From Tremella fuciformis (Eukaryota > Basidiomycota > Tremellomycetes > Tremellales > Tremellaceae), in the NCBI GenBank assembly GCA_032768795.1, contig CP136492.1, positions 806,001-870,000 of the forward strand: 64,000 nucleotides of DNA, in the 5' to 3' direction. Below are positions 712 to 61,664 of the stretch, piece after piece. Within the stretch, counting starts at the first letter, position 1. Every line of letters starts with the position of its first letter. Position numbers and translations under genes: made by a program. A model generated the notes under the pieces. That model made no database searches and was not told the DNA's origin. It was given only the letters and a program-made list of their open reading frames with translations.

Positions 712-3161
712 CTAGACAGCGGCCACGATCGCCTCTGCGGAGTTGAGCGCTCCGACCATCTTGATGCACTCTTTCCGTCTGCACAGTTAGCTGACATCCG
801 ACCAAGACCGAGGGCAGCTCACCTGGCAACAACATCCGGGGCCTCTTTGAGCAACTCTTCCAGTACTTCAGGCTTGTATAGGTGCTCTAGCAGCTCCTTC
901 TGCAGGTTCTCCTTCGAGTAGTTGACCAATGTAAGTGAGATCGCTTTCGGGACCATGTCGATCATCTCGCGCTTGACAACCGAGAAGTATGACTGAATGA
1001 GGAGCTCTGACGGTCAGCGAGAAACGGAGCGAAGGGCTGTCACGTACTGATCACTTCGGTCTCCATCGATTCTCGTTCACTGAAGCTCTGCGATACGGGT
1101 TTGATGACAGGCGGCGGTGCCTCCATGACAGCTCCCTTCCTTTTGGCTGCTGCTGTCTTGTCCTTTGAGAAGAAGCTACCGAAGAAGCTCTCTTCTCGCT
1201 TCATGTCGGCGTCCAAATCTTTGCCATTGTTGAGCGCGCCCGGTGCAAGCTTGCCAGACTTAGGGTCTACAGGCTTTTCTGGAGGCTTGTTGGCGTTCAG
1301 GCGCTCCTGTACGATAGCCATTGCCCGGTGACCGTTCAGGAAGTCTGGATGGGTCGTGTTGACATAGCATGCCTGCATGGCGACCATATCCGAGACCAGC
1401 TTGTTGGTCGGTGTCATGCACGCCTTGAAGAAGTTGATCACAATGATGTTGAAGCGCTCCTTCAATTCTGGGTATCGCTTGAAAGTCTGGGTCTTTGCAA
1501 GGAGCTGGCCGAGGATGCGAATCAATTCGTCGTAGACTAAAGCGCAACACCGAAGGGAGGGGTCCTCCAGTCGACGGATTTGCTGTTTGACAATGATTTC
1601 AAATGCCGCTGTGCCAACAAAGAGTGATGGCGTGGAACCAGACGAGTTGTAGAGGATAGTTCGAATGTCCCCGTCTTTGACCTGGTCGAACGGATCGATG
1701 GACTTGACTCCATTGTTGAACAGCTCGTGGAATACGAAGGAGATACGGGCACCACCGGAGAGCTCGTTGAGTGAGAGGTCGTTGGTGTTACCATCGATAG
1801 CTGACCTGAACTCGGCGCAGAATTCAGTGATCGTTGAGAGCACAACACTGCCAGGGTTTGTCTCGCCCATGGGACCTCCGAGTGCCGCCAGCTCCATCTG
1901 ATATTTCGCTAGCTGTTGACTGATACGAGCTTTGATGTCCGGCAAGGTGTTGCGAATGTGGTGCATGAGAATCTGTGAGTCAGCTGCCGATTTGTACGCT
2001 CTGAGCTGTGCAGCTCACGATGTTGAGCTTCCTTGCCAACCATGGTGTACCGCAATATGAGGCCTTACTGGCGTAGCTCGGATGAGTCTCAAAGAACTTT
2101 CTCTCGTTGTCCAGTGCAGAGGCAATCGATTTGCTCTGGTCAATGTCCCTTTGTCCTCGGTTGACCACCGGCACGTATCCCAAACGCAAGGGAATGACCC
2201 GTCCAGCCAAAATGTCCACAACATCCGTCCCCTGATCCATCAAGTCGACCTTGGTCAAAACACCAATCGTTCTGGTTCCTTCCGGGTCCACTTCTCGAGC
2301 CAGCTTCAAACCATCAGAATTGGCCAAATCGGTATTGGCGGCGGTAACAGCAAGAATGATGGCGTTGGGTTTGGAGATGTAGCGCATGAGCATGTCTCTG
2401 ATCTGCTTCTCGATATCCCGGGGTTGGTCGCCGACCGGGACTTTGGTCAAACCAGGCAAGTCGACCAATGTGAGGGTGAGGACGTTAGGCGAGAACACTC
2501 GCAAGTTGATGGGGTTTGGGGAGATTCCTGGCCGTCAACAAACTTGCAGCGCACGGCACACGCAACTCGCCTGCATTCTTGCCGGTCATCTTCTCGGTGT
2601 CGCGCACGATCTCCTCTCTGATCTTGTTGAAGTCGTGGAACTTCTGACCGGGGAGATGAAGGAACTCTCCCCACTCATCGGGATTGTTCTCGTTGATATG
2701 GGTGCGCGACATCGCCTCCTCTGCTTCTGTCAGTTTTCATCGCGTGTCGCCATCGGAACAGCTGACCTGGTTTCTCTGAAGCAGAGACGCCATTTGGCTT
2801 GCTTGTGGCCGGTCGATTGATCAATTGCAGCACAAGCGGCCGACGAGTGACGATACCCGTCCCTCGAGGCAAGAAGTCGCGACCAACGATATTCTAGCCA
2901 TCAGAACAGACTGGTACCTCTCATCTGAGACGCCTTACCTCGAGAACGGACGATTTGCCACTGGATTGCGAGCCAATGACAGTGATTTGGGGAAGATCCT
3001 GTCCAAGTTAGCCTTCATATGCCGAGCTGACGTGTTGTCTCACCAAGTTGTTCTGCACGCCGATTGATGTGAAGACATCTTGCAGCTGTGCATGTTAGCG
3101 AAGTCAAGGGACCTCGGAGCTGGCTTGCCTTGTTGACCAAGCTGATGAGTTGCTGGTCCAT
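712..3161 (-). CDS. VPS1: Vps1-type dynamin-related GTPase
   Basis: A large GTPase that assembles on Golgi/endosomal and peroxisomal membranes and drives fission. The start ATG (3159-3161) opens [11 protein letters not shown]. Splicing then gives [20 protein letters not shown] (G1 P-loop), the [13 protein letters not shown] switch I region, [16 protein letters not shown] (G3) and VLTKVDLMD (G4). The middle domain follows ([14 protein letters not shown] onward), then a charged linker with an FFGSFF patch, and a GTPase effector domain ([20 protein letters not shown]) ending in a TAG stop at 712-714. There is no PH or proline-rich domain, as expected for Vps1. At least six short introns are inferred; two appear to be GC-AG (3086-3128 and 2528-2570). 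[15 protein letters not shown] across the second matches the usual Vps1 wording. Vps1 rather than Dnm1 because of the short insert B; the Dnm1 paralog is at 31.4 kb. Confidence 0.95.
2528..2570 (-). other. GC-AG intron of VPS1 after the KNAG motif
   Basis: The minus-strand exon ends ...AATGCAG, followed by GCGAGT, and the intron ends GGCCAG. Splicing yields [14 protein letters not shown], as expected before the LVDLPG motif. An alternative GT donor slightly downstream also keeps frame but inserts ELR, which disturbs a conserved stretch, so the GC donor is preferred but not certain. Length 43 nt. Confidence 0.6.
3086..3128 (-). other. GC-AG intron 1 of VPS1
   Basis: On the minus strand the exon ends in AACAAG, the intron begins GCAAGC and ends ACAG, and the next exon starts CTGCAAGATGTC. 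Joining in phase 0 gives LVNKLQDVF, the standard N-terminal run of dynamin family members. I saw no GT donor that restores this frame. Length 43 nt, typical for this genome. Confidence 0.75.
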
Positions 3162-3460: not shown

Positions 3461-4143
3461 TCAGCGTAGCTCTTACGGGGCGAATTTCTGCGGGTGTCCC
3501 TGGAACGAAAACGGTAAATGGGGGAATTAAATAAGAAAATTCCGGCCATTCTGATTTCATCAGCACAATCCTAATATGCATTGTGTCCTTGCCAAATTGC
3601 CTTTCATCAGAGAATAAAGATCTATGCATGAGGCTGATGCATGGAATGATCTCTGTAGCAGAACCAATCGCCTACATAGCTACTGCCATACCCTGCCCTA
3701 TCATTGCACCAAAATGGTTACAATAGCGCAAGTCTGACAAGACTGCAATAGGCTTGCCAGGTGGCAGCTGTGACATAGCCCCTGTGACCAGCTTGGCATG
3801 CCTATGATCATCTGATCAGCCTAGCATGCCCAACAAGCACTTGCGCATCTCTTGATGAAGTGCTTTAGCTTGCAACTAATCAATGTTCTACAGTACATCC
3901 GGCTTTGCCGGATGCTTGACCCGTAAGGGCTGCGATGGCTGCGCCGCTAGGCGCAAGGGGGGGTCTTGGGGGGGTGTCCCACCCCCCCATGTCTAACGGA
4001 ACCAAAGAACAAGGAATTGCATTAGGTTTTCCAAATTGCCTGAGAACCAATAACTTGAATACCTGATTAGAAATTCAGAGCTAAAAAAGAATTGAAATAA
4101 CGAGCTACGCCCTATCGCGCACTTTCCTGCACGATCTACCTAG
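3461..4143 (+). mobile_element. Helitron-like non-autonomous element, copy 1
   Basis: A 683-bp sequence that recurs at 57660-58342 and 60888-61570 with the same length and no difference that I could find by eye. It begins TCAGCGTAGCTC and ends CTAG, with the next host base T. A stem-loop (TCGCGCA at 4115-4121, loop CTTTCC, TGCACGA at 4128-4134, one mismatch) lies 5 nt before CTAG. These are Helitron traits. The base before the TC is G here but A in the other copies. The 9-mer GCGTAGCTC near the left end is repeated inverted as GAGCTACGC at 4102-4110, like the asymmetric terminal inverted repeats of Helentron/Helitron2 elements. No target-site duplication and no transposase coding are seen. 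It sits in the divergent promoter between VPS1 and the gene at 4237, ending 93 bp before that ATG. Confidence 0.75.
3896..3988 (+). repeat. Cluster of three perfect hairpins inside the repeat element
   Basis: Three stem-loops follow each other: CATCCGGC-TTT-GCCGGATG (3896-3914), TGCGCC-GCTA-GGCGCA (3940-3955), and a seven-G run at 3968-3974 that pairs with seven C at 3982-3988 across a 7-nt loop. A further seven-G run at 3957-3963 could compete for the same C run. The cluster is retained in all three copies. If the element is transcribed into the downstream leader these would form strong RNA structures; that is inference. Confidence 0.7.
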
Positions 4144-4236
4144 TGGAGGACGTCCAAGCTGGCTAAAGCTCTTCTGGTATCGTTCGACACCTCAGATCAC
4201 CGTAACTCCAAGTTCTCTGCCATCGGTTTGTTCAAA

Positions 4237-23941: not shown

Positions 23942-24571
23942 ATGGCTCTCAATACGACAATCATGGGGAACAAGGCAGCATCAACGCACCCGCAACTACA
24001 TCAGACTGCCTCATCAGGAACAGATGCGGGCGAAAATTCGCCCACAGCAAACCTCGGCGATCGCCACAAAGTACCCTTGAGTCTGTTCCATTTGCAGGTA
24101 CTGAAGGACCAAGAGCATGGCCTTCACATGCCCGTCACAAGTATTGAAGACTCATCTGGATTGGAGTACAGCATGAGCACCGTAGCTCATCTTCCGGTCG
24201 GTCTCGGACGGCCGGACGCTATGACCTATCCGATCTCCGGAACTGTACTGGGATGTGTGCTGAGCGACTTCATAGTCCGGATCGAATCCCAACTGACTGA
24301 GCCAAGTGAGTCGGAGCTAGAGTTGTCCTTCCGCAGGGTAGCCGCGCGGGACTGGACTTCAACGGCGAGGGCCAAGACTATGGAGCGCTTGAGCACCAAC
24401 GAATGTCGCCTTCATCTCTCAGAGGTTGACGTCACGATTCAATTCAATCCACCCATCATGGACGAGGATGTTGAGGCACTAAGGGCTGTGTTTTCCACGG
24501 GATATGTACAAAGTCTCCAACCTCGCCAGAAGAAGCGGCACTCGAAGGTTTGCACGTCCTCAGCATTGTGA
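23942..24571 (+). CDS. Tandem paralog family member 1, unknown function
   Basis: Single exon of 209 codons from ATG 23942 (MALNTTIMGNKAAST). I do not recognise a domain. The first 60 residues are polar and probably disordered. Block 1 of the family reads SGTVLGCVLSDFIV...LELSF, and block 2 CRLHLSEVDVTIQFNPPI followed by a short helix (DEDVEALRAVF). A basic tail (RQKKRHSK) ends the protein. There is no signal peptide or membrane helix. It is the first of six same-strand intronless members between the nuclease gene and DNM1, and the most diverged in block 1. The intact frame with both blocks argues for a real gene. Nothing in the sequence shows its biochemical role. Confidence 0.7.
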   Translation: MALNTTIMGNKAASTHPQLHQTASSGTDAGENSPTANLGDRHKVPLSLFHLQVLKDQEHGLHMPVTSIEDSSGLEYSMSTVAHLPVGLGRPDAMTYPISGTVLGCVLSDFIVRIESQLTEPSESELELSFRRVAARDWTSTARAKTMERLSTNECRLHLSEVDVTIQFNPPIMDEDVEALRAVFSTGYVQSLQPRQKKRHSKVCTSSAL

Positions 24572-25081
24572 TCTCATCGCCCAGTCCGTGTGTCCCGTTC
24601 CGCATCTTCCCTGGCTCAGGACGTTTATGAATACAGTATACTTGCCTCTCCCTCCCCACGCAACCCTGTGATGCAACCTATTTGAAGTTCTTGCTGCATA
24701 TTGGAGACTCAGATACCTGGTCAGCTGATGCTGCACGTCAAGAGACCTTAGATACCAGTTCACACCTTGAACAGCCTTCTCGGCCAGGTCTCTTACTGAA
24801 ACCTGAAAATACCTCATGACTGACTGACAATACGAGACTGCCTTGTAGCTCGACAAGGCTCTCGAAACCCCTATGCTAAACTTTACACATCGACAGTCTG
24901 GTCTTGACGACCATTTCCCCACGGCGACGAAGCGCTGTTGCAAATCACATATGGCAGTTCAAAGGATGCCCGTGTCTGTCAAGATTTCAACCGTGAGACT
25001 TGAGATCCACTTTCACAACCGTTCCCCTTCGGCCTCCAGCATCACCGACCAGCACCTATACGAGTATCTCAAGAGTCCCTG
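24572..25081. other. Spacer between family members 1 and 2
   Basis: About 510 bp, fairly A/T-rich, with no gene or repeat that I can see. It should hold the terminator of member 1 and the promoter of member 2. Confidence 0.5.
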
Positions 25082-25750
25082 ATGTTCCGTAAATCTCATC
25101 GTGGCCGGGGCGCTGACACTCAAAACACAGTCGAGCGCACGCCACTTCCCACTCAACCGGAATCGGTGCCTCGAGGAGAGCAGGCTTCTACGCTGTCTTT
25201 CGTCCCCGCGTCCCATTATGCTGCCACGGCCAGCCATGCCTCGGTCATCTTACCGGCTCAGTCTGCTTCTTCACAACTCGCCGCCATCTCACCCAGCTGT
25301 GAACTAGAGCCGTGGCCTCTCGAGAAGTTGCAATTCCTCACCGATATAGGTAACTTCTATAACGCAGGAGCAAAATCACACTCTGACACCGAATATACGC
25401 TGTTCACAACTATCCACCAGTTCGATGGCCTAAGAAATTTCAATGTGGGCCTTATGGACGGCCCCACTATCGCGGCTACGCTGGGCAATGTCGCGGCCGA
25501 ATTGCTGAGCACCCGTGCAGGGGACATCGTTGAGCAGCTAAGTGACAGCTTTAGTATCATCGCGAGACCATTCCACGCCGGAAAGCAAGCGAATCTACAG
25601 GACGTTGCCCAAACGTCTTGCTCGGTCTCGCTCGATAAGCTTGGTCTCGACAAGGTCACCATCTACTTCAAGCCGGAACTGACTTACGATCAAATGATCA
25701 AACTCAAGAAAGCTACCTCTGGATCTGAGGTGTTCGGCCTTACCTGTTGA
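25082..25750 (+). CDS. Tandem paralog family member 2, unknown function
   Basis: Single exon of 222 codons from ATG 25082 (MFRKSHRGRGADTQ). A basic, Ser/Pro/Ala-rich first half of about 100 residues leads to a strand-like segment YTLFTTIHQFDGL. Block 1 follows as GPTIAATLGNVAAELLST...IVEQLSDSF. Block 2 is CSVSLDKLGLDKVTIYFKPE, followed by a helix (TYDQMIKLKKAT). The order strand-helix-helix-strand-strand-helix is shared by all six members, which suggests one compact alpha/beta domain. No catalytic motif is evident. The frame is intact, without intron signals inside the conserved part. Confidence 0.7.
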   Translation: MFRKSHRGRGADTQNTVERTPLPTQPESVPRGEQASTLSFVPASHYAATASHASVILPAQSASSQLAAISPSCELEPWPLEKLQFLTDIGNFYNAGAKSHSDTEYTLFTTIHQFDGLRNFNVGLMDGPTIAATLGNVAAELLSTRAGDIVEQLSDSFSIIARPFHAGKQANLQDVAQTSCSVSLDKLGLDKVTIYFKPELTYDQMIKLKKATSGSEVFGLTC

Positions 25751-26437
25751 AACACATTACATCCTTCTGGTATAACCTGTATGTATCGAATCCATCCTCA
25801 CTCGTTATGTATGTATATCGACCGACTGACAAGCACCTGTGAAGTGGCTTCATGAGGATCGCTCCGACAAGTGACTCGATGCAGCGGGCGCTCTTGTCTA
25901 GGCGTTGGGTCTTTTGCCGACGCGTGGGGAATAGAAAACAGGACCGTGCACGAGCCATCGTGTGATCTGGGAGATTCGGATCGCTTCGGCTGCAGGGAAA
26001 CACCTCCTGCTCTTGAAGCTCGAGTGCTCTGACAGTGGTGTCAGGAGAGATGAGTGGGGTTCGCTTTGCACGCCGGCCAGAAGGCGACAGACGAAGGGCA
26101 GGGGTTTCGTCTGACATCTTCTAGGCAGGGAAGTCCGCCAACCTGCCTCTTCTCACGCATGCGAATCCGCGCACCCACATACTCATACGAAGCAGCGGAG
26201 CCTGATGAAGGGAAGGCGTGACCGTCGCGATTCGTTCACATGCAGCCATGTGGTATGCGCAGCATCCCACTGTTCGCTTTGCAGATTTCCCACGCTGAAT
26301 TTGCGCGCGCGAGGCGGGGGCTCACGATATGAGTGGCAGAAAGGTATTTGTACAGGGCTATTGCCATCGGGAAGAACCATCTGTTTCCAAACCAGTGTCT
26401 TCTACACAATACACTTCCATCTCAAATACAGATAGTA
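25751..26437. other. Spacer between family members 2 and 3
   Basis: About 690 bp with no gene. The open frame of member 3 runs back to about 26333 but lacks an ATG before 26438. I see no decayed family copy here. Confidence 0.5.
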
Positions 26438-27064
26438 ATGCCTCGCCGCTTCTCCCGCAGCAGCCGCTCTACACGCCAAGGGGGATATGTCCCGCTTGTC
26501 GAACATCCAGACACCGGAGTCGATTATGGCAGCATCCCAGCCACGAGCACACAATCCTCTGTCGAGGCGGGACTTCAGCCGCAAGAGGAGGCAAGTGCGT
26601 CCTCCGCAATCCGGCACCGCAGGAGTGAGTGGAATCTGCAGAGATTGAGAGGACTTACCAGATTGCAAAACTGGTATAGGATCTCTGTGGCAGTGTACCC
26701 CTACAGCCACGTCGTTTTGGACAGCGAGACCCAGCAGATGGTGGGGTACGAATGGATGACTGCGGCCGCGCTGGGGGGCGATGTGATTGCGGCGACGCTG
26801 TCCGAGTTTATTTCAGAAATGCCTTGCCTTGATTGGTATGAGATTGAGGAAACGTTGCAGAAGAGTTTCAGGCGAGCGATCCGAGGGGCGAATACTTCCA
26901 ACGAGACATGTACAAGGGTCAGCGACGTCACCAATAGATCTTGCAAAATACATCTCGTGGGTAATGATCCTCAACCGATCAAGCTCGTCTTCAGTCCCGA
27001 GCTCTCACAGCAGCAGCTTGACGAGTTTTCTCGGGCTCTGCTTCCTGGAGGTGAGGCGACATAA
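26438..27064 (+). CDS. Tandem paralog family member 3, unknown function
   Basis: Single exon of 208 codons. The first in-frame ATG is 26438 (MPRRFSRSSRSTRQGG), which opens a basic, probably disordered leader. The conserved part reads WYRISVAVYPYSHVVL (strand), then block 1 GGDVIAATLSEFISE...IEETLQKSF and block 2 CKIHLVGNDPQPIKLVFSPE with the closing helix SQQQLDEFSRALL. Block 1 and block 2 align with the other five members without large gaps. No domain recognised; no signal peptide or membrane helix. The stop is TAA at 27062-27064. Confidence 0.72.
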   Translation: MPRRFSRSSRSTRQGGYVPLVEHPDTGVDYGSIPATSTQSSVEAGLQPQEEASASSAIRHRRSEWNLQRLRGLTRLQNWYRISVAVYPYSHVVLDSETQQMVGYEWMTAAALGGDVIAATLSEFISEMPCLDWYEIEETLQKSFRRAIRGANTSNETCTRVSDVTNRSCKIHLVGNDPQPIKLVFSPELSQQQLDEFSRALLPGGEAT

Positions 27065-28147
27065 CTTTTCTGATGCATGCACTGTCCTGTTATCACCAAA
27101 CGTGTCTGCTTCCCGAAACAGGATGACAGACTTGTTGGTGAACTCCTGCTTCTCATTGGCCGTCCAGTGCTGTAGCCGCTGCCAAACATTGGCATGTCTT
27201 TACCTTGTACTAGTACTACTTGTGCTGTTGGTGCTAGAAGAAAACTTCACTGAGAGGTGACGCAGGAAGGCAGCCTATCGCAGACAAAGCCAGGCTCCCC
27301 CGATCCCTTAGTGTCCTCGATGACAAGCTCTGTCCCGAGCCGTAAAGCGAGAGCACTCCTCCCCACGGTTGAGCCGACCTTCGTAGGCTGTGTCGCGGTC
27401 TTTGCCTCACCGCCACACAAGCTTCAGCAAGTCAAGAAGCAATGACAGAGAAGGGATCTGTTGCGAAGCGCTGTCAGCGTGAACGCCTCAGGTCCTAGCC
27501 CTTGTCTGAATCGCGCAATGCACGCGTAAGGCATTCGCTGCATCATAGCCCTCACATTCGGGGTCGCACTTCACTTCAAGCGACATGCACTCAAGTCAGT
27601 GCTCCTCGTGATTGTAGCTGCTACGGCCTTGGCAGAATCAAACCTCCAGTTCCGCGCGCGCGTGCGGTCATGGGCATCATGCGCTCCCAGTACCTGTCTC
27701 GAACAGTCATGGCATTGTGCGACACACAGTCTCCCGGGGCAGGTACTGCTATGCTCGTGACAGTGCGGCTCGGTACTGGCAGTTTGACAAATCACAGGTT
27801 TAAAGCACGCGCTCGTGTGGTGCTCTCGTGCTGACGAGGAGACTGATTCAGAATGGTCCGTGCGGACCGCCCACAAGCAGCCGAACTGATTTTGTGCCCA
27901 ATTTCGGCTAATGGAATTCAGCAGTCCTCAGCGCTCTGCTGCGACTTGCTTCGACGAAAGGATGTCTAGAGATAAGTCTGTCTTTCCGCGGTCGGTCGTT
28001 GAACATCGCAATGACCTCTTTTGACGAGCATCGATCGCAGGCCACACCTTTGAAAGGGCCGCCTCGCCACAAAGATGCCCTCGACCGAGCTTTCATTTCA
28101 GGTTGATATAAGAATACCGCATTGTAACCGAAAGCATAGAATACGGA
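27065..28147. other. Spacer between family members 3 and 4
   Basis: The longest gap in the array, about 1.08 kb. Only short, unconserved open frames are present on both strands. A GATATAAG stretch near 28106, some 40 bp before the next ATG, could be a TATA-like element. I see no relic of a lost member. Confidence 0.5.
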
Positions 28148-28789
28148 ATGCGTCGAGCCAGTACAGGTGGCAGTGAGGCAGCCCCAACGCGACCTCTCAC
28201 CGCTTTTGCGAGTGGCATTGACCAGTCAGAACTTCCCTTGGAAGGTCGCAAGGTGGCGAGAACCCAAATGGAACGCCTCAAGACGTCCTACCTGTCGTGG
28301 CAAGAGATCAAGGAGCGCCACTGGCACCAATCCCTCTGTATAAACGTCACACATCACAAGCAGACCGATGAGGAGCCAGAAACATACGAGTTGGACACGC
28401 GGATCCGATTTCGAGATGCCGGCCCGAAGGAAGGCTTGGTCCATGGTCACACTTCGGCGGAAGTGCTTGCGCTCTTGTTTGGCCACTTCACATCTTGCAG
28501 TGCGTCCTTGACTGACCCCGCAGAGATCCGCGATCAGCTGCTGGACTCCTTCGTAGTAGTTGCCTCTCATGGATTCTCGGAAATCGGACAGATCAACGAT
28601 ATCAAGGACATCTCTTCCGTGGGATGCTTCGTGCCACTGGGAACCGTGGGGGACAGACAAACTGTTCGATACATCCGGGTGACCTTTGAGCCAGCTCTTG
28701 AGCTAGAAGAAAGCAAGCAATTGGCAAGCAAGGTGAGCGCAAATGACCACAAGTTCGTGACACCAGTACCTTGTGAGCATACTCTCTGA
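28148..28789 (+). CDS. Tandem paralog family member 4, unknown function
   Basis: Single exon of 213 codons from ATG 28148 (MRRASTGGSEAAPT). The leader is shorter and less disordered than in the other members and includes RLKTSYLSWQEIKERHWHQS. A strand-like segment YELDTRIRFRDA precedes block 1, SAEVLALLFGHFTSC...IRDQLLDSF. Block 2 is VGCFVPLG then VRYIRVTFEPAL, with a helix LEESKQLASKV. Block 2 wording (VGCxVxL...FxPxL) is closest to member 6. Function unknown. Confidence 0.72.
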   Translation: MRRASTGGSEAAPTRPLTAFASGIDQSELPLEGRKVARTQMERLKTSYLSWQEIKERHWHQSLCINVTHHKQTDEEPETYELDTRIRFRDAGPKEGLVHGHTSAEVLALLFGHFTSCSASLTDPAEIRDQLLDSFVVVASHGFSEIGQINDIKDISSVGCFVPLGTVGDRQTVRYIRVTFEPALELEESKQLASKVSANDHKFVTPVPCEHTL

Positions 28790-29289
28790 TCAGATGATTT
28801 GGGAAATCACACCTAACGTTGAGGAAGAGCGCCACATGCATGTGATAGAGTCTACCTTTGGCGACGATCCCGTTCGAAGCACACACCGTGACTGAGAGCC
28901 ACGCTGGGTGGAGTTGGACTCATTGTACATGGGGTCCTCCAGAGGGTATAGAGTCAGACACCTGCGCTCGCCGCGGGTATAGGGGGATCTCGGACGGAGT
29001 GGCGACGGTGGCGACGATTCGTGTGGGAGAATCATCCAGGCTTTGCACTATACGACCGATCGACTGAGTTTGCTCCATCCCTTGTGAGCAAGCAGGCGAA
29101 AGGAGCGTCGTTTATAGTCTTGACTTGAGCCCGTAGCCTCGAAAATCAGTCAGCGTTTCTTCATACACGGCGCATCAGCTATACCCACACTAGCTCGCTC
29201 AGATCTCGCAGATTGAACCCGTTCTCCTCTCTTTCAACAAGGGTCAAGCACTCCTCGAAGAAATCCACAGCCTGAGCCCAACGCTAAAG
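28790..29289. other. Spacer between family members 4 and 5
   Basis: About 500 bp without a gene. No repeat or clear promoter motif beyond a TTTATAG stretch near 29110. Confidence 0.45.
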
Positions 29290-30081
29290 ATGAGCAGCAA
29301 GTCACAAGAGCGTCCTTCTCACGCCGCCGAGAGAAGGCGAGCCGGTCCAGGCTCCACCCCGCCTGGCATGCCAGGTCAGAAATCCGCCATTTCTGGTGCG
29401 TACGGATCAGGGGTTGAGAGCTCAGACTCACGGTCCTCTGGCCCCAAAGCCCGAAACACGATCCTGACATTCGGGCAAACGTCGTCTGTTGCATCTACAG
29501 CTTTTCCGACGTCTACTCTCCCTACTTTATCGGAAAGCGAATTGCAGTACCAGATTCACACATACGGGGTAAAGCTGTCCTTAGGAAGGAACCCACCCCC
29601 AGTAGACGATGATGACCTCAGCAGAGCTGCTCGCAGGATCATAGTAAGCACCGAGATATACGACGACTTTGGACAGCGAAGATCCTCCGTACCAGGCGAA
29701 CTGTTGGCTCGGACCTTGGAGCACTTCCTGCTAACAAACCGCAGCATAAATCGCCATGTGATACAAACTGGGTTGCAGCACAGCTTCTCAATCTCGCTTG
29801 CCATCTCGTCAGTCGATCCATACGACCAGCTGGTATCCGACCTGGCACAAGAGCAGTCGGTTCATGCCATCTCCTTGTTGAGGCCGGACGATATCAGCCA
29901 CATAGGCTTTCAAATTCCCCTGCCAGGAGACGGCAAGGTCACTCGGGCTGAGGTATTCTTCGACCCCCCCTTGAACGATCAGCAGCTGAAGGGTTTCACA
30001 GAAGGAATGGAAAGCGTGGTGCTTAGAGCGATCGACCATGGCAAGCTGATCAGCTGGCGCTCCGCAAAGCGCCCTCGTTGA
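29290..30081 (+). CDS. Tandem paralog family member 5, unknown function
   Basis: Single exon of 263 codons from ATG 29290 (MSSKSQERPSHAAERRRA), the longest member. The first 90 residues are Ser/Gly/Pro/Arg-rich. The conserved part starts RRIIVSTEIYDDFGQR (strand). Block 1 is PGELLARTLEHFLLTN...IQTGLQHSF, and block 2 IGFQIPLPGDGKVTRAEVFF then DPPL, with helix NDQQLKGFTEGME. About 30 extra residues lie between the blocks. A basic tail (KLISWRSAKRPR) could act as a nuclear signal, which is inference. Members 5 and 6 look closest in block 1. Confidence 0.74.
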   Translation: MSSKSQERPSHAAERRRAGPGSTPPGMPGQKSAISGAYGSGVESSDSRSSGPKARNTILTFGQTSSVASTAFPTSTLPTLSESELQYQIHTYGVKLSLGRNPPPVDDDDLSRAARRIIVSTEIYDDFGQRRSSVPGELLARTLEHFLLTNRSINRHVIQTGLQHSFSISLAISSVDPYDQLVSDLAQEQSVHAISLLRPDDISHIGFQIPLPGDGKVTRAEVFFDPPLNDQQLKGFTEGMESVVLRAIDHGKLISWRSAKRPR

Positions 30082-30405
30082 ATTGAGAGTATGTTACGTC
30101 CGACGTCAGGCGAGTCTGTGTCAATATGTGCCCCGAATGTGCCAGCGCGCGAGTCATTTCGCCTCACGTGGGAATGTATGCAGGTGTCTATGTTGCAGAT
30201 TGCTCGCAGGATCCGACCTCGTGCACAATGTTGCTGCCTCGATGCAGTGTACTTAATGTTCCCCGAGACGAGCTCCACGCGGTCAGTAGTTGCTCCTTTC
30301 TGGCTGCGCTGTGGCGAACCTTTGTCCGCAGAACCTAAGCTCTTGCTGATGATAGTCGTCCGGCCACTCACTGTTTACCGACTCTTTAAAACTGGTTATA
30401 ACAGC
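30082..30405. other. Spacer between family members 5 and 6
   Basis: About 320 bp. The frame of member 6 is open back to an ATG at 30091, but the upstream residues look unlike a family leader. A CTTTAAAA stretch near 30384 would fit a TATA-like box for a start at 30406. Confidence 0.5.
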
Positions 30406-31128
30406 ATGTCGCGTCAAGATAAGCCCAAACGCCGCCCCAGCTTGGAGAATGACGCCAACACAGAGGCGCACCGTACCTCGGTGTTCGCCACCGGGTACGA
30501 GAGAGTATATGAAGGCGACCTGAGGCGACGCGGAGGCGCTCCCTCCATGCGCCCGGGGTCCACCATCCGCGAACTTGCTCCAACTCCGCTTTGGAAGCTG
30601 CCAATTTCGCATCTGCCTCTGCTAGATGCAAAGGACATGCGTGAGCTACAGAGTCAGGGCGATTCGTTGAGCATCTCCTGCACGATCATCTCGCAAAAAG
30701 CGAGACTGCCCAAAAACCGTCACATGCAGATAGAACTCACAATCGAAGTCTATTCGACGCGTCGAGAGAGCGTGCTCGCCAGTCTGCCGGCCGATCTGTT
30801 GGCGGCCAGTCTGAAAGACTTTGTTGTCCGCAATGGCAGTTCTGTGCCCAGTGAAATTTGCAATCAGCTGGAACAGAGTTTCCAAAACGCCCTGATTGGG
30901 TCGGAACCCTCTGACTGCAGCGACAGCAGGATCGAGAAGGCCAACTCCGTCGGTTGCAATGTGGTCCTGCCGCCGGCAACGGAGTCCAGGAAGCTGACAA
31001 TTCTGTTTCGTCCTCCGCTGAGGCAAGACCAATCCAGAAGGCTCTCAACATTGTGTGGGACTGCGAATACAGATAACGATAGCAATGCTGAGCAAGGTTG
31101 GCGACGTGACTGGCTTCCTCGAACATAA
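30406..31128 (+). CDS. Tandem paralog family member 6, unknown function
   Basis: Single exon; ATG 30406 (MSRQDKPKRRPSLEND) gives 240 codons, in the size range of its paralogs. An earlier in-frame ATG at 30091 would give 345. The leader is basic and polar. The conserved part reads MQIELTIEVYSTRRES (strand), block 1 PADLLAASLKDFVVRN...ICNQLEQSF, and block 2 SVGCNVVLPPATESRKLTIL then FRPPL, with helix RQDQSRRLSTL. This member shows the clearest version of both blocks and is a good query for the family. The gene ends 283 bp before DNM1. No known domain. Confidence 0.74.
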   Translation: MSRQDKPKRRPSLENDANTEAHRTSVFATGYERVYEGDLRRRGGAPSMRPGSTIRELAPTPLWKLPISHLPLLDAKDMRELQSQGDSLSISCTIISQKARLPKNRHMQIELTIEVYSTRRESVLASLPADLLAASLKDFVVRNGSSVPSEICNQLEQSFQNALIGSEPSDCSDSRIEKANSVGCNVVLPPATESRKLTILFRPPLRQDQSRRLSTLCGTANTDNDSNAEQGWRRDWLPRT

Positions 31129-31411: not shown

Positions 31412-34291
31412 ATGTCCATGGACGGCGACCTCATCGCGCTTGTCAACAAGCTTCAAGACACCTTCAATGCCATTGGAGGCGACTCGGTGGACCTCCCGCA
31501 GATCGTCGTCGTCGGCTCGCAGTCGTCCGGCAAGTCGTCCGTCCTAGAGACCATCGTCGGGAGGGACTTTCTCCCTCGAGGTCAGGGCATTGTCACCCGT
31601 CGCCCTCTCGTTCTGCAGCTTATTCATACACCTGGACCGGCGTCCTCGCCTCGCAGTGGACCCAATGATTCCCTCGCGTCGAGCTCGACCGCAGGTGCAG
31701 CCAGCTTTCGCCGGTCGCCCAGGATAGACGGCAACCTCGCTCCCGCAGATAGGGAGAATGACTACTTGCCACAACTGGAGCAGACGCCGACAGCGGGTGC
31801 TGGAGTGATGAGACCAGGCGGTAGTCGTATGGGAGGTAGCAGCGGGGCGGAATATGCCGAGTTCCTGCACATTAACAGGAGATTCACCGACTTTGACGAG
31901 ATCCGTAAAGAGATAGAGGCCGAGACCTTCAGAGTGGCGGGGCAGAACAAGGTGAGTCTAAACTCCTGCTGTCAGCGCGGTGGGTCGCTCACGACATGAG
32001 GGCGTTTCGAGATTGCCGATCAATCTCAAGATATACGGGCCGGGCGTCCTCAATCTCACTTTGGTCGACCTTCCTGGTTTGACCAAGGTTCCAGTAGGAG
32101 ACCAGCCTACCGATATTGAGCGGCAGATCAAGAGTCTTGTGGTTGACTACATATCGAAGCCGAACTCGTCAGTCTATGCTTCCTCCAGCTTGCAGTCACT
32201 TACGGTCAGAGTCATTCTTGCCGTCTCGCCAGCCAACGTGGATTTGGCCAACTCGGATGCCCTGAAGCTCGCGCGCTCCGTCGATCCTAGGGGACTGCGG
32301 ACATTGGGCGTTCTCACAAAGCTGGACCTCATGGATGCTGGCACAAACGCTCTCGATGTTCTCACCGGCCGGACATATCCCCTCAAGCTGGGCTTCGTCG
32401 GGGTGGTCAACCGCAGCCAGCAGGATATCATGACGGATGTGCCTATGGATGATGCGCGAAGGAAAGAAGAGGAGTTTTTCCGAAGTCATCCAGTCTACCG
32501 CAACATCGCACATCGCTGTGGCACGAAGTATCTGGCGAAGACGCTCAACACAGTCAGCTGGATGAACATAGAATTTCTGAGCTGACAAGCAGGTTCTCAT
32601 GTCCCACATCCGGGAAAAGCTCCCGGACATGAAGGCCAGGCTCAATACCCTGATGGGCCAAACACAGCAGGAGCTGTCAGCGTTCGGGGATGCCACCTTC
32701 CTCGGTGAACAACATCGCGGATCTCTCATCCTCAAGCTCATGACCGAATTCTCGCGAGACTTCGTCTCCTCCATCGAGGGCACTTCATTGGAGATCTCCA
32801 CGAAAGAGCTTTGTGGCGGAGCTCGGGTATACTACATCTTCAACGAGGTATTCGGGCACGCCTTGCAATCTATCGACCCCACGCAGAATCTATCGTTATC
32901 CGACATTCGAACCGCCATCCGCAACTCGACCGGGCCGAGGCCAAGCTTGTTTGTGCCTGAAGTAGCATTCGATCTTCTCGTCAAACCGCAAATCAAACTG
33001 CTCGAACCACCGAGTTTGCGATGTGTGGAGTTGGTTTACGAGGAGCTGATGAAGATCTGCCATAATTGCACCAGTCCCGTAAGTCGCTCGTCATCGCGGA
33101 CTGTGTCAATAGCTGACTTTACAGGAATTGCAGCGGTTCCCTCGCCTATTGACTCAGCTGGTCGAAGTGGTATCGGAGTTGCTACGCGAAAGGCTTGGAC
33201 CGACATCAGAGTATGTTTCGAGCCTAATTGCGATCCAGGCTGCGTATATCAATACCAATCACCCGGACTTTGTTGCTGGCTCTGCGGCGATTGCTCGTCA
33301 AGGTCCCAAGCCGATAGCTGCACCCAAAGAACCGTCGCATCACTCGTCGGTTGAAGAAGATGAGGAAGAAGACTCTGATGCCGGATCGACTGTCCCAAAT
33401 GGCACGACTCCCGTCAACAACGTCCACCATCCTCGTTCCGCATCTACTTCAGTGCAGGAGAAGCGGCCTCTAGTACCAGCCAAAAGCATCAATGATGCTA
33501 AACGGCATCACCATCGCGCAGCATCGGGTGGGGCCGCAACCCAGCTGCAGAACCATCTCGCCCCGCCTCCTCCGGCATCAATCGCCGGCACATCGCCTCA
33601 TGGAGCGAAGGAGACGTTCTTGAATTACTTCTTTGGCGGTCCAAACTCTCCAAATGCGCCGTTAGTCTCGTCTGCTCCAGTTACTCATGCCGCCTCGCCT
33701 GCCTCGACCGACGGTCGAATGGAGCGGGCCGGATCCAGATCGAGAGCGCCACCTTCCGCCTTTGTGAACCGCGAAATCTTGCCTGATCTCAACAGCGGCC
33801 GAAGACAAGGCAGCAGGAGCGGACTGGAGAATGGCACGACTGCGTTTGACATGAAGAGTTTGGGCAAGCATCTCGAGGCGGTGAGCCGGTCCCAAGGCGA
33901 GAGGCATTCACAGTTGACATCCAGGGCCCGCTTGACCAACCTTTGCACCTTTCGCCGAGAGAAGAGATGGAGACCACGCTCATTCGATCCCTGATCGGGA
34001 GCTACTTTGGGATCACTCGTCAGACGATCCAGGACCTTGTGCCAAAAGCTATCATGCACTTGCTCGTGAGTCAGCTTGAACATGAACGTATCTACAGCTG
34101 ACGCTAAGGTCAACTTTTCGCGCGATGCGGTGCAACAAAGGCTGGTCACGTCACTGTACAAGCCGGAACTGTTTGCGGAATTGCTATACGAGGACGATGC
34201 GCTCGTCTCGGAGCGCACAAGGGTCAAGGCGCTGCTTGATGCGTACAAGGAGGCGTTCCGGGTGTTAAGCGAGGTGTCGTTGAAAAGCTGA
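31412..34291 (+). CDS. DNM1: Dnm1-type dynamin-related GTPase (mitochondrial/peroxisomal fission)
   Basis: A cytosolic GTPase recruited to mitochondria and peroxisomes, where its ring drives fission. ATG 31412 gives [19 protein letters not shown], then [20 protein letters not shown] (G1) and [18 protein letters not shown] Ser/Pro-rich insert follows in the GTPase domain, then [39 protein letters not shown] (G3) and [13 protein letters not shown] (G4). The middle domain begins [15 protein letters not shown]. The long variable insert B (about 33300-33860) is acidic, Ser/His-rich and includes [10 protein letters not shown]. The effector domain reads [20 protein letters not shown] and ends [19 protein letters not shown]. 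About six introns, for example 32168-32210 and 33859-33920 (acceptor choice uncertain). The long insert B and the opening [10 protein letters not shown] fit Dnm1/Drp1 rather than Vps1. Confidence 0.95.
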
Positions 34292-54952: not shown

Positions 54953-55513
54953 TCTCGAGTGTATCTTGGGCATCTTGGTGCATCGCGCATGTCGTCAGTG
55001 AATGACTGAGCTGCGGCTTCGGCGTGACGTGATGCAAGGTTTCGGGGTGCTATGAGCACAAGAAATGGGCGATACAGGGGTGATGGAGATGAAGAGAGAC
55101 GCGACGTGAATGTGCCCTTTGGGATATCCCTGAACTGTCCAGTCCGAAACAACCTCTCATGTCCCGATCGAGTAATTTCCCGTTCTGGTGCCTGAATACA
55201 ATGTACCTCCACGCGCGAATCCAGTCGTCAACAGCGACCGCAGCCTGTCTCATTCTGCTCTGCTCTTCGTCTTGGATATCGACATTACCGCTCATCACTC
55301 ATCGCATAGATCATAGACGTGTCTTGGACCTCGACCCGCTGTCTCGTCTCTCCCTCCCGTGCCCTATCTCCCCCCTCCCCCTCGCTCCTCGCGTCCCCCA
55401 GTGCAGTCCAGGCTCCCCCCAATTCCACCGGCTCCACCGACTCATTTCCCAGGAAGGGACGCGCCGTCTCACTCAGACTCAGACCGGTGCACACCATCGA
55501 CCTTCCCGTGGCC
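54953..55513. promoter_or_regulatory. 5' region of the homeodomain gene
   Basis: 560 bp with a strongly pyrimidine-rich half (55330-55440, many CTC/CCC), common upstream of tremellomycete start codons. The downstream frame is open from about 55319 but has no ATG before 55514. Confidence 0.5.
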
Positions 55514-57494
55514 ATGTCCCACACCGACGAGAACTCCCCGGTCCTGCGCACTCCCAGCAAGCACTCTGCCCCGATCGGGTCCTGCCCTCCGTCTGTATCG
55601 GCGCGTCGACCGCTGGGCAATATGGATATGAATATGAACGCCAACGTCCCCCTCGTCCCTCCTCAGACTCTTCACCTTCCTCAAGAGAATCGCAAACTCC
55701 CTCTACCTGTTCAACTTCCCAACTCGACCTCTGCATTCCAGACCCCCACTGCTACACCTTTCGCAAATCGCACTCATCCCCTTCTTCCCCCTCCCTTCTC
55801 TCGCACACACTCCGAGCCCCTCCTGCATCACCGCCACCATCAACCCCAATACTCGCAGCCGCCCATCCCGCCCGTTCCGGGACTGACGCCCACTATGCCC
55901 CGGCTCAAGCGCGCGCCGACATCGCGCAGTGTCCACTCGTCCTCTCCGACCGACGCGTCCACGACCTCCTTCCCCTCCTCGTCCTCGCACTCGCGCGCCT
56001 CGGTATCGACCTCGGCCACGCTCTTCGAACCTGAAGTCACGCCGACCAAGATGCCGGAGCTGCTGAGCATCACCAACACTTTCGGCCTCATGAGCCCCGC
56101 GCCGTTCCCCGGCCCTTACCCGTCCGGATTCCTCCAATGCGAGCCGTGCCCGTGGACGGAGAAGGAGCTGCGGAGAATGCGCGAGACCAACTCTTTCAAG
56201 GTCAACGAGTCGAGCTTGAACCCCTGGGACTATATCGTACGAGGTGGCGACAGCGAGAGCCCCAAGATCCGCCCGGTACCCCTCCTTGATGAGGTGGCCA
56301 TCGGTGGAAAGCGCAAAGTCAGGAGGCGGTTCAGCAATGAGGAGCTGCAGTGCCTCGAGATCGTCTGGTCCATCTCGCATGATCACAAGAAGTACTCGAA
56401 GCAACGTCTCGGCGCGTGGATCGGCGTCCCCACCAAGCACATCACGTACTGGGTATGTTCCTTCCGTACCCCAGCACGCGTCCGTCCTGACATGCCAGCT
56501 GCAGAACCGCAGGCAGGAGTTGAAGAAGGCCAAGCTCGACGGCCTGATCACGTCCGACGACATGTCTGCCGCTGGCGGCAAAGGTACCTTCGACCCAACC
56601 ACTGGCAAGATGCGAACCGTCCCCCCTTCCTGCATCACCGCTATCTTCCCTCCTTCCCCACATCGCACGGCCTTCCTCAACAGCGTCCTTGTTGGCGATT
56701 TCACCCGCGAGATGTACTACGAGGCGATGGCGCCCAGTCCTACTCTAGCCGGATCGGCCGGATCACCAGTACCGAAACTCCCCATCAAGCCTCTGCCTCA
56801 ACGGGCACCCAGCGCCAGTCTCGACGATGTGCAGAAGCATCGCGAAGACGGCTTTGGCGCCGGGATTGGCAAGCGTAAGAGGCAGACCGGGGGATTGGTC
56901 CTCGCCGACGACTCGCCCGCGAGGAACGAGCAGCTCCTGGCTCTCATGTCGAGTGACCCACCTTCCGAGCCGGACGGTCCCGACGGTGACGAGGAGGTCG
57001 ACCATCGTGTGCCACTCGGTCGCGGTCGTCCCTCCACTTCGAGGGCAGTTGGCAGGGTTTCCAGACCGATCTTTGGACGCGCCACCTCTCATGACCTCAT
57101 GGCGTCCAGTCAAAGAGCCAGGGAGCTCATTGCCCAACAAGGCCGACATGCGACGGATCCCATCCATAGCCGACCACCACCGATGCTTCAGCCGGGAATC
57201 AAAAGGCGGCTTCCGCCTGTGCCGACGCACGAGGACGCCGTCAACAAGTATGCCAAGGTCAGCGCGACCCGCTCGGTAGTGCGCTCCCTCTCTGCGTCAG
57301 ACGCCGGCGCAGATCTGCCCCCCGTCGGCGACTTGCTGGCCTCGGTCGCCGGACCCAGCGATTGGTTTTCTCGTCACAACTCGCTCACACTGCCGGTGCC
57401 GGCTCGGCTGAAGGAAGAAAGAGAACAAAACGGTCAAGATGCAGAGGCGGACTGGGCGGCCAGTCTCCTGTTGTCCTTCTCTCAAGGGGCTTAA
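55514..57494 (+). CDS. Homeodomain transcription factor
   Basis: ATG 55514 gives MSHTDENSPVLRTPSKHSAP. A long Pro/Ser/His-rich region is followed by a conserved-looking stretch MPELLSITNTFGLMSPAPFP, GFLQCEPCPWTEKELRRMRE and VNESSLNPWDYIVRGGDSES. The homeodomain is KRKVRRRFSNEELQCLEIVW, SISHDHKKYSKQRLGAWIGV, PTKHITYW|LQNRRQELKKAK; an intron (about 56453-56499) cuts helix 3 between W48 and L49. The usual F at position 49 is L; N51 and R53 are kept. The C-terminal half is disordered with basic and acidic patches and ends WAASLLLSFSQGA (TAA 57492-57494). Yeast Yox1/Yhp1-type cell cycle repressors have a similar single homeodomain in a disordered chain; this is a possible relation only. There is no sign of a mating-type locus (no divergent partner gene). 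Confidence 0.88.
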
Positions 57495-57659: not shown

Positions 57660-58342
57660 TCAGCGTAGCTCTTACGGGGCGAATTTCTGCGGGTGTCCCT
57701 GGAACGAAAACGGTAAATGGGGGAATTAAATAAGAAAATTCCGGCCATTCTGATTTCATCAGCACAATCCTAATATGCATTGTGTCCTTGCCAAATTGCC
57801 TTTCATCAGAGAATAAAGATCTATGCATGAGGCTGATGCATGGAATGATCTCTGTAGCAGAACCAATCGCCTACATAGCTACTGCCATACCCTGCCCTAT
57901 CATTGCACCAAAATGGTTACAATAGCGCAAGTCTGACAAGACTGCAATAGGCTTGCCAGGTGGCAGCTGTGACATAGCCCCTGTGACCAGCTTGGCATGC
58001 CTATGATCATCTGATCAGCCTAGCATGCCCAACAAGCACTTGCGCATCTCTTGATGAAGTGCTTTAGCTTGCAACTAATCAATGTTCTACAGTACATCCG
58101 GCTTTGCCGGATGCTTGACCCGTAAGGGCTGCGATGGCTGCGCCGCTAGGCGCAAGGGGGGGTCTTGGGGGGGTGTCCCACCCCCCCATGTCTAACGGAA
58201 CCAAAGAACAAGGAATTGCATTAGGTTTTCCAAATTGCCTGAGAACCAATAACTTGAATACCTGATTAGAAATTCAGAGCTAAAAAAGAATTGAAATAAC
58301 GAGCTACGCCCTATCGCGCACTTTCCTGCACGATCTACCTAG
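57660..58342 (+). mobile_element. Helitron-like non-autonomous element, copy 2
   Basis: The same 683-bp sequence as at 3461, in the same orientation, with A before the initial TC and T after the terminal CTAG, which is the classic Helitron A|T target. It lies between the homeodomain gene (165 bp from its stop) and SLX1, whose start codon is only 24 bp beyond the element. The SLX1 core promoter and leader must therefore lie largely inside the element, unless transcription starts upstream of it. Confidence 0.8.
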
Positions 58343-58366
58343 TCGTCTTTGATCGCTGTATGTGTC

Positions 58367-60887: not shown

Positions 60888-61570
60888 TCAGCGTAGCTCT
60901 TACGGGGCGAATTTCTGCGGGTGTCCCTGGAACGAAAACGGTAAATGGGGGAATTAAATAAGAAAATTCCGGCCATTCTGATTTCATCAGCACAATCCTA
61001 ATATGCATTGTGTCCTTGCCAAATTGCCTTTCATCAGAGAATAAAGATCTATGCATGAGGCTGATGCATGGAATGATCTCTGTAGCAGAACCAATCGCCT
61101 ACATAGCTACTGCCATACCCTGCCCTATCATTGCACCAAAATGGTTACAATAGCGCAAGTCTGACAAGACTGCAATAGGCTTGCCAGGTGGCAGCTGTGA
61201 CATAGCCCCTGTGACCAGCTTGGCATGCCTATGATCATCTGATCAGCCTAGCATGCCCAACAAGCACTTGCGCATCTCTTGATGAAGTGCTTTAGCTTGC
61301 AACTAATCAATGTTCTACAGTACATCCGGCTTTGCCGGATGCTTGACCCGTAAGGGCTGCGATGGCTGCGCCGCTAGGCGCAAGGGGGGGTCTTGGGGGG
61401 GTGTCCCACCCCCCCATGTCTAACGGAACCAAAGAACAAGGAATTGCATTAGGTTTTCCAAATTGCCTGAGAACCAATAACTTGAATACCTGATTAGAAA
61501 TTCAGAGCTAAAAAAGAATTGAAATAACGAGCTACGCCCTATCGCGCACTTTCCTGCACGATCTACCTAG
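60888..61570 (+). mobile_element. Helitron-like non-autonomous element, copy 3
   Basis: Third copy of the 683-bp element, same orientation, A before TC and T after CTAG. It occupies the divergent promoter between DPH3 and the Ca2+/H+ exchanger gene and ends 94 bp before the exchanger ATG, almost the same spacing as copy 1 to its gene (93 bp). Confidence 0.8.
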
Positions 61571-61664
61571 TTAAAAGGCCAAGCACGGGCACAGCCTCTC
61601 GTCCATCTCTCAAAAGTACCTCTTATACTTGCTTGTGACTCACCAAGTGGTCATCAAGCCCATC

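What the first reader, a model, noticed from the sequence alone, without database searches (positions are those of the whole stretch)
23942..31128. Tandem array of six diverged, intronless paralogs with no recognised domain
Six consecutive same-strand open genes (209, 222, 208, 213, 263 and 240 codons) share an order of elements: variable basic/Ser-rich leader, a strand, block 1 and block 2. Block 1 in short form: SGTVLGCVLSDF (1), GPTIAATLGNV (2), GGDVIAATLSEF (3), SAEVLALLFGHF (4), PGELLARTLEHF (5), PADLLAASLKDF (6), each followed about 15 residues later by a helix ending in SF (LELSF, QLSDSF, TLQKSF, LLDSF, LQHSF, LEQSF). Block 2 has C/G-x-V/I-x-L and then FxPxL/I: QFNPPI, YFKPEL, VFSPEL, TFEPAL, FFDPPL, LFRPPL. 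Most named genes around them carry several introns, so an all-single-exon cluster is notable. Strong divergence with intact frames suggests old, possibly fast-evolving tandem duplication. No catalytic motif, signal peptide or membrane helix seen. It is the best candidate here for an undescribed system; its function is open.
Basis: seen in the sequence. Interest (0 to 1): 0.88.

Follow-up and report, generated by a model that had tools for sequence, protein, structure and literature searches.

The report
Intronless orphan gene family in fungus
Six neighbouring genes in an unnamed fungus, plus three more found nearby, form a protein family that matched no known protein family or solved structure here; it is real, but its function can only be guessed.

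Summary
The six single-exon ORFs are homologous: each is recognised by a profile of the other five at E 8e-7 to 3e-19. The family is larger than reported: a second same-strand cluster, two intact genes and one with an in-frame TGA, lies 62-65 kb downstream on the same contig, outside the window. Single-sequence searches of the 28 Mb genome confirmed no member elsewhere, but they are insensitive. A close relative of gene 6 exists on a public contig (83%, no gaps). No significant Pfam, PHROG, PDB-sequence or viral relative was found. An AlphaFold2 model of the gene-3 domain is fairly confident (pLDDT 83, pTM 0.81): alpha-beta3-alpha2-beta2-alpha, with no convincing structural match. I infer soluble, non-enzymatic, adaptor-like binding proteins: a basic tail, a shared helix/strand scaffold and a more divergent beta meander as the member-specific surface. 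Support for that last step is weak: not significant when counted by structural element. 'Fast-evolving' is not supported for gene 6. Function is unproven.

The parts
23942..24571 (+). g1, 209 codons; domain from about 24071
   Evidence: leave-one-out E 9.7e-10
25082..25750 (+). g2, 222 codons; domain from about 25304; closest to g3 (25% over 169 aa)
   Evidence: (E 2.7e-10)
26438..27064 (+). g3, 208 codons; domain 26621-27061, the better modelled one
   Evidence: E 2.8e-17; pLDDT 83.3, pTM 0.81
28148..28789 (+). g4, 213 codons; domain from about 28280; the same protein is listed in the protein database (P0001, longest contig 966 nt)
   Evidence: (E 7.5e-11)
29290..30081 (+). g5, 263 codons; domain from about 29512
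   Evidence: E 8.4e-7
30406..31128 (+). g6, 240 codons; domain from about 30607; start uncertain (30406, or 30349 because similarity to P0002 runs on upstream)
   Evidence: (E 2.9e-19)

Best explanation
A lineage-restricted family of small, soluble, non-enzymatic intracellular proteins made of a flexible basic N-terminal tail and one alpha/beta domain of about 135 residues. Shown: the members are homologous, have open single-exon frames, lie in two same-strand clusters on one contig, and start with a net positive stretch; the six window proteins have no transmembrane stretch. Inferred: one intronless founder was duplicated in tandem, and a copy seeded the second cluster. The helix after the meander and the last two strands (ending in FxPPL) are the shared scaffold. 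The more divergent beta meander is the member-specific contact surface, so each paralog binds its own partner, as adaptor families do. The basic tail may serve nuclear entry or contact with nucleic acid or membrane.
For: Homology: (profile-profile of n7 and n8 against the six: probability 95.6%, E 1.2e-8 for that single comparison). Domain: the AF2 models of g6 (pLDDT 56.7) and g3 (pLDDT 83.3) give the same main order of elements. Between paralogs conservation is highest in H2, E4 and E5 (mean BLOSUM62 1.33, 1.28, 1.31) and lowest in E1 and E3 (-0.27, -0.22). Between g6 and P0002 it leans the other way: residues 67-118 (first helix and first two strands) 3 changes in 52, residues 119-222 21 in 104, Fisher p 0.019. 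No Asp, Glu, His or Lys is invariant. The first 20 residues carry net +21 over 8 proteins, against a mean of -4.7 for random windows elsewhere, 0 of 20000 draws. Highest 19-residue hydropathy in the six window proteins 1.45; the peak lies inside the domain in 6 of 6.
Against: No expression, binding or localisation data. Counted by the elements of the g6 model, the reversed conservation is not significant: meander strands 2 changes in 25, H2+H3+E4+E5 8 in 44, p 0.31; against H2+E4+E5 6 in 27, p 0.25. Much of the contrast thus sits in loops, and the segments were set after I had seen the alignment. The leader does not fit either: its mean paralog score (0.31) is not lower than that of coil (0.18). 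It is one pair of proteins, without DNA, so no dN/dS. The better model rests on 7 sequences, and its four sister models score pLDDT 50-69. One polar residue, the Ser of block 1, is invariant in the six, though n7 has Ala there.
Confidence: 0.32

Rival explanations
1. Conflict genes: self/non-self recognition, spore killing or restriction of mobile elements, diversified by an arms race.
For: Tandem copies of which one of nine is broken, strong divergence between paralogs, few relatives found, and a genome with at least 42 identical full copies of a 684-bp repeat on one contig.
Against: g6 is well conserved against P0002 (83%, no gaps), no faster than the neighbouring EXO1-like exon (77%). No transmembrane stretch in the six.
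Confidence: 0.17
2. A catalytically dead relative of the nucleotidyltransferase (pol beta, cGAS, TUT7, NF90) palm fold.
For: The structural second looks list this fold often: many of the 50 rows (TUT7, cGAS, NF90, GLD-2) and 50 of 50 rows (pol beta, DncV). That these share one fold is recalled.
Confidence: 0.12
3. Domesticated protein of a virus or mobile element, which would explain the lack of introns.
For: Single exons in an intron-rich clade (PMC8022950 and PMC3990503, passages).
Against: P0002 has no relative in viral contigs, the six domains none in PHROGs at E up to 1, and the g3 model none in BFVD better than E 0.17. Only short, chance-like repeats around the copies.
Confidence: 0.13
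4. A known family diverged beyond sequence recognition.
For: No library of predicted cellular structures and no profile-profile library was at hand; Foldseek can miss small folds.
Against: Pfam at E up to 10 gave only DUF2470, in 1 of 6 domains, E 0.14; PDB profile search best E 0.16, lambda integrase, two helices; Foldseek against PDB best E 0.14.
Confidence: 0.25
5. Chance open frames with chance resemblance.
For: No codon bias in favour of the frames.
Against: Leave-one-out E down to 3e-19, gapless relative of g6, second cluster found by the profile.
Confidence: 0.01

Closest known systems
Intronless genes of Cryptococcus neoformans (35 expressed genes without introns, 10 of them unique to the species; PMC3990503, passage seen)
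   Same: Intronless genes in an intron-rich tremellomycete, partly without relatives elsewhere
   Different: Those are a genome-wide list; here one homologous family sits in two tandem clusters. No gene-by-gene comparison was made
Nucleotidyltransferase palm (DNA polymerase beta, cGAS, NF90/NF45)
   Different: No invariant acidic residue, score in the noise range, about half the domain aligned
DUF2470 (PF10615)
   Same: One of six domains at E 0.14
   Different: Not significant; the other five give nothing

Membership tests
Lineage-restricted tandem paralog family | Members homologous to each other | tested here: met
Lineage-restricted tandem paralog family | Head-to-tail, same strand, adjacent | tested here: met
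   second cluster
Lineage-restricted tandem paralog family | No relatives outside a narrow clade | tested here: inconclusive
   Only g4 itself and P0002 in the 5.8-billion database at E up to 10 (2307 candidates), which does hold named Tremellomycetes; but word seeding may miss distant members, and no fungal genome other than the own was searched
Nucleotidyltransferase fold | Conserved catalytic acidic residues | tested here: not met
   Invariant columns contain no Asp or Glu
Nucleotidyltransferase fold | Palm topology | tested here: inconclusive
DUF2470 | Score above the Pfam cut-off | tested here: not met
   1 of 6 domains, E 0.14; 0 of 6 full proteins
Secreted small effector | Hydrophobic N-terminal signal sequence | tested here: not met
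   First 20 residues net positive in 8 of 8; hydropathy peak in the domain in 6 of 6. No dedicated signal-peptide predictor was available
Tyrosine recombinase core-binding domain | Significant profile match | tested here: inconclusive
   lambda integrase E 0.16, two helices only

The most novel reading that the evidence does not exclude
A new protein fold and family in which one scaffold carries paralog-specific binding surfaces, forming a small repertoire of recognition proteins (partners perhaps other nuclei's products or mobile elements) that arose in one fungal lineage and escaped intron gain.
Probability: 0.1. Interest if true: 0.8.

Novelty: new variant of a known kind. Interest (0 to 1): 0.48.

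Why it matters
In Cryptococcus neoformans only 35 expressed genes lack introns (PMC3990503, passage), and another paper states that 99.5% of 6795 annotated coding genes have introns (PMC8022950, passage). A whole intronless family in what looks like a related fungus, with a fairly confident model that matched no solved structure, makes a compact test case for how orphan genes gain folds and diverge in function.

Tried and rejected
Profile A1 (full length) against 5.8 billion proteins: nothing at E up to 1 among the 8000 candidates scored; the domain-only profile A2 did better. The six single-protein searches of the own genome found only the array, apart from two weak places on C2. They missed the second cluster, so they are no proof of absence.

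A weak hit on C2:1856716 (E 0.086; reciprocal 0.165) proved to belong to another local family (C1:2765981 and C1:2769590). By eye it shares a WTRASIA-type motif that I do not see in the array proteins and lacks block 2; the six-member profile gives it 3.5 bits. I do not count it; I did not run a profile-profile test of that family. Weak hits of the cluster-2 genes on C2:3160884, C7:874614 and C1:573198 contain stops and could not be fetched.

The first AF2 model (g6, pLDDT 56.7) was too poor for fold assignment; I take its STING and cGAS rows as noise. No k-mers shared by the upstream stretches above the threshold used; only short repeats of 16-34 nt in the region. Codon usage did not separate frames. 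One search was my mistake: a wrong family accession (RAMP4) was searched and says nothing. Rfam: no match in the window at gathering cut-offs.

Papers: searches listed nothing that describes this family. I saw titles and beginnings of abstracts of the rows shown only (15 of 21, 10 of 23, 10 of 39, 8 of 109, 8 of 76, 8 of 247, 5 of 312); the library holds open-licence PMC papers. Of PMC3990503 and PMC8022950 I saw passages.

Full report
What is there. Six + strand ORFs at 23942-31128 code for proteins of 209, 222, 208, 213, 263 and 240 residues. The window is C3:806001-870000 of a 28.14 Mb genome in 11 contigs. The flanking genes are an EXO1-like XPG nuclease on the left (PF00867) and a dynamin on the right (PF00350 and PF01031 in separate ORFs). 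The nuclease exon's named relatives are in Cryptotrichosporon argae (40%), Naematelia encephala (37%), Cryptococcus wingfieldii and Vanrija albida (36% each) (32 hits among the 7995 candidates scored). That fits a tremellomycete without a close named relative in that search; the species is not identified.

Is it more than chance. A profile built from any five of the six recognises the sixth at E 9.7e-10, 2.7e-10, 2.8e-17, 7.5e-11, 8.4e-7 and 2.9e-19 (g1 to g6; 610 window ORFs, 1800 shuffled proteins and the six). With the profile of all six, the best shuffle scores 9.5 bits. Identity to the first sequence of each alignment is 14-24%. Evidence that does not help: codon bias favours the true frame in only 1 of 6, and a Markov model of the region expects 0.49 stop-free runs of 220 or more residues against 6 seen (300 simulations).

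How large is the family. Single-protein searches of the whole genome found only the array, apart from two weak places on C2. A profile search of 22 fetched stretches of 10 kb (C3 flanks 120 kb, C1 60 kb, C2 40 kb) found two further genes on the same contig, n8 at C3:899178-899861 and n7 at C3:900829-901500 (E 0.11 and 9.9e-6; coordinates). n8 is weak against the six on its own, but matches n7 at 1.6e-15. None of 5000 shuffles of either protein reached its score, and a profile-profile comparison of n7 and n8 with the six gives probability 95.6%, E 1.2e-8. Searching with these two added a third at about C3:902.17-902.61 kb with one in-frame TGA (E 0.0089 and 2.2e-4). So at least nine genes, eight intact, lie in two same-strand clusters 62 kb apart. 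Most of the genome has not been searched with the profile, so more members may exist.

Relatives elsewhere. In 5.8 billion proteins the domain profile found g4 itself and one protein, P0002, from a 2041-nt contig. P0002 matches g6 over all 240 residues at 83% without a gap; I take it as an ortholog from a sister species. There is no Pfam family at E up to 10 for any of the six full proteins or for P0002, and no PHROG at E up to 1. Scanned as isolated domains, one of six touches DUF2470 at E 0.14. The PDB sequence search gives lambda integrase at E 0.16. P0002 has no relative in viral contigs.

How it may work. The first 20 residues are net positive in 8 of 8 intact members (+1 to +5, sum +21; random windows elsewhere average a sum of -4.7). 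The six window proteins have no transmembrane stretch. Among paralogs the helix after the meander and the last two strands are best conserved, and strands E1 and E3 of the meander worst. Between g6 and P0002, residues 67-118 (first helix and first two strands) changed in 3 of 52 and residues 119-222 in 21 of 104 (p 0.019). But a recount by the elements of the g6 model gives 2 of 25 against 8 of 44, p 0.31, and the leader does not follow the pattern among paralogs. A shared scaffold with paralog-specific surfaces is therefore only a lead. The first 24 residues changed most (13 of 24).

Evolution. Lack of introns is striking for the clade: 5.7 introns per gene and only 35 expressed intronless genes in C. 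neoformans (PMC3990503, passages), and 99.5% of 6795 genes with introns (PMC8022950, passage). But paralogs inherit the state of their founder, so this is probably one event, not six. g6 is not evolving faster than the EXO1-like neighbour (77% to P0003), with the caveat that the two relatives may come from different species.

Verdict. A real, apparently undescribed, lineage-restricted family, larger than first reported. Mechanism inferred as paralog-specific binding or adaptor proteins (0.32).

Noticed in passing
3461-4144, 57660-58343, 60888-61571: A 684-bp repeat, 100% identical in all three window copies. The own-genome search lists 42 full-length copies at 100% identity on contig C1 alone and had 242 first-look candidates, of which only 40 were scored. 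Termini TC...CTAGT, no target-site duplication seen, A before the 5' end in 2 of 3 copies: Helitron-like by recalled rules, and apparently a very recent burst. The 3' hairpin is not better than in shuffles (z -1.04).
   Followed up: partly
C1:2765981-2766334, C1:2769590-2769982, C2:1856629-1857540 (loci L018-L020, outside the window): Another small family with long open frames in this genome: WTRASIA-type motif, C-terminal Cys-rich part in two of three members by eye.
   Followed up: partly
55319-57494 (+): A homeodomain gene apparently split by an intron (a 50-residue piece matches PF00046 at E 7e-4, below the curated cut-off). Whether it belongs to a mating-type locus was not tested.
   Followed up: no
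1040-1966 (-) and 31412-33354 (+): Two dynamin genes about 30 kb apart in the window (PF01031 in both).
   Followed up: no
30349-30405 (+): The stretch upstream of the g6 start codon is still similar to P0002 in the same frame by eye, so the true start may be 30349.
   Followed up: no
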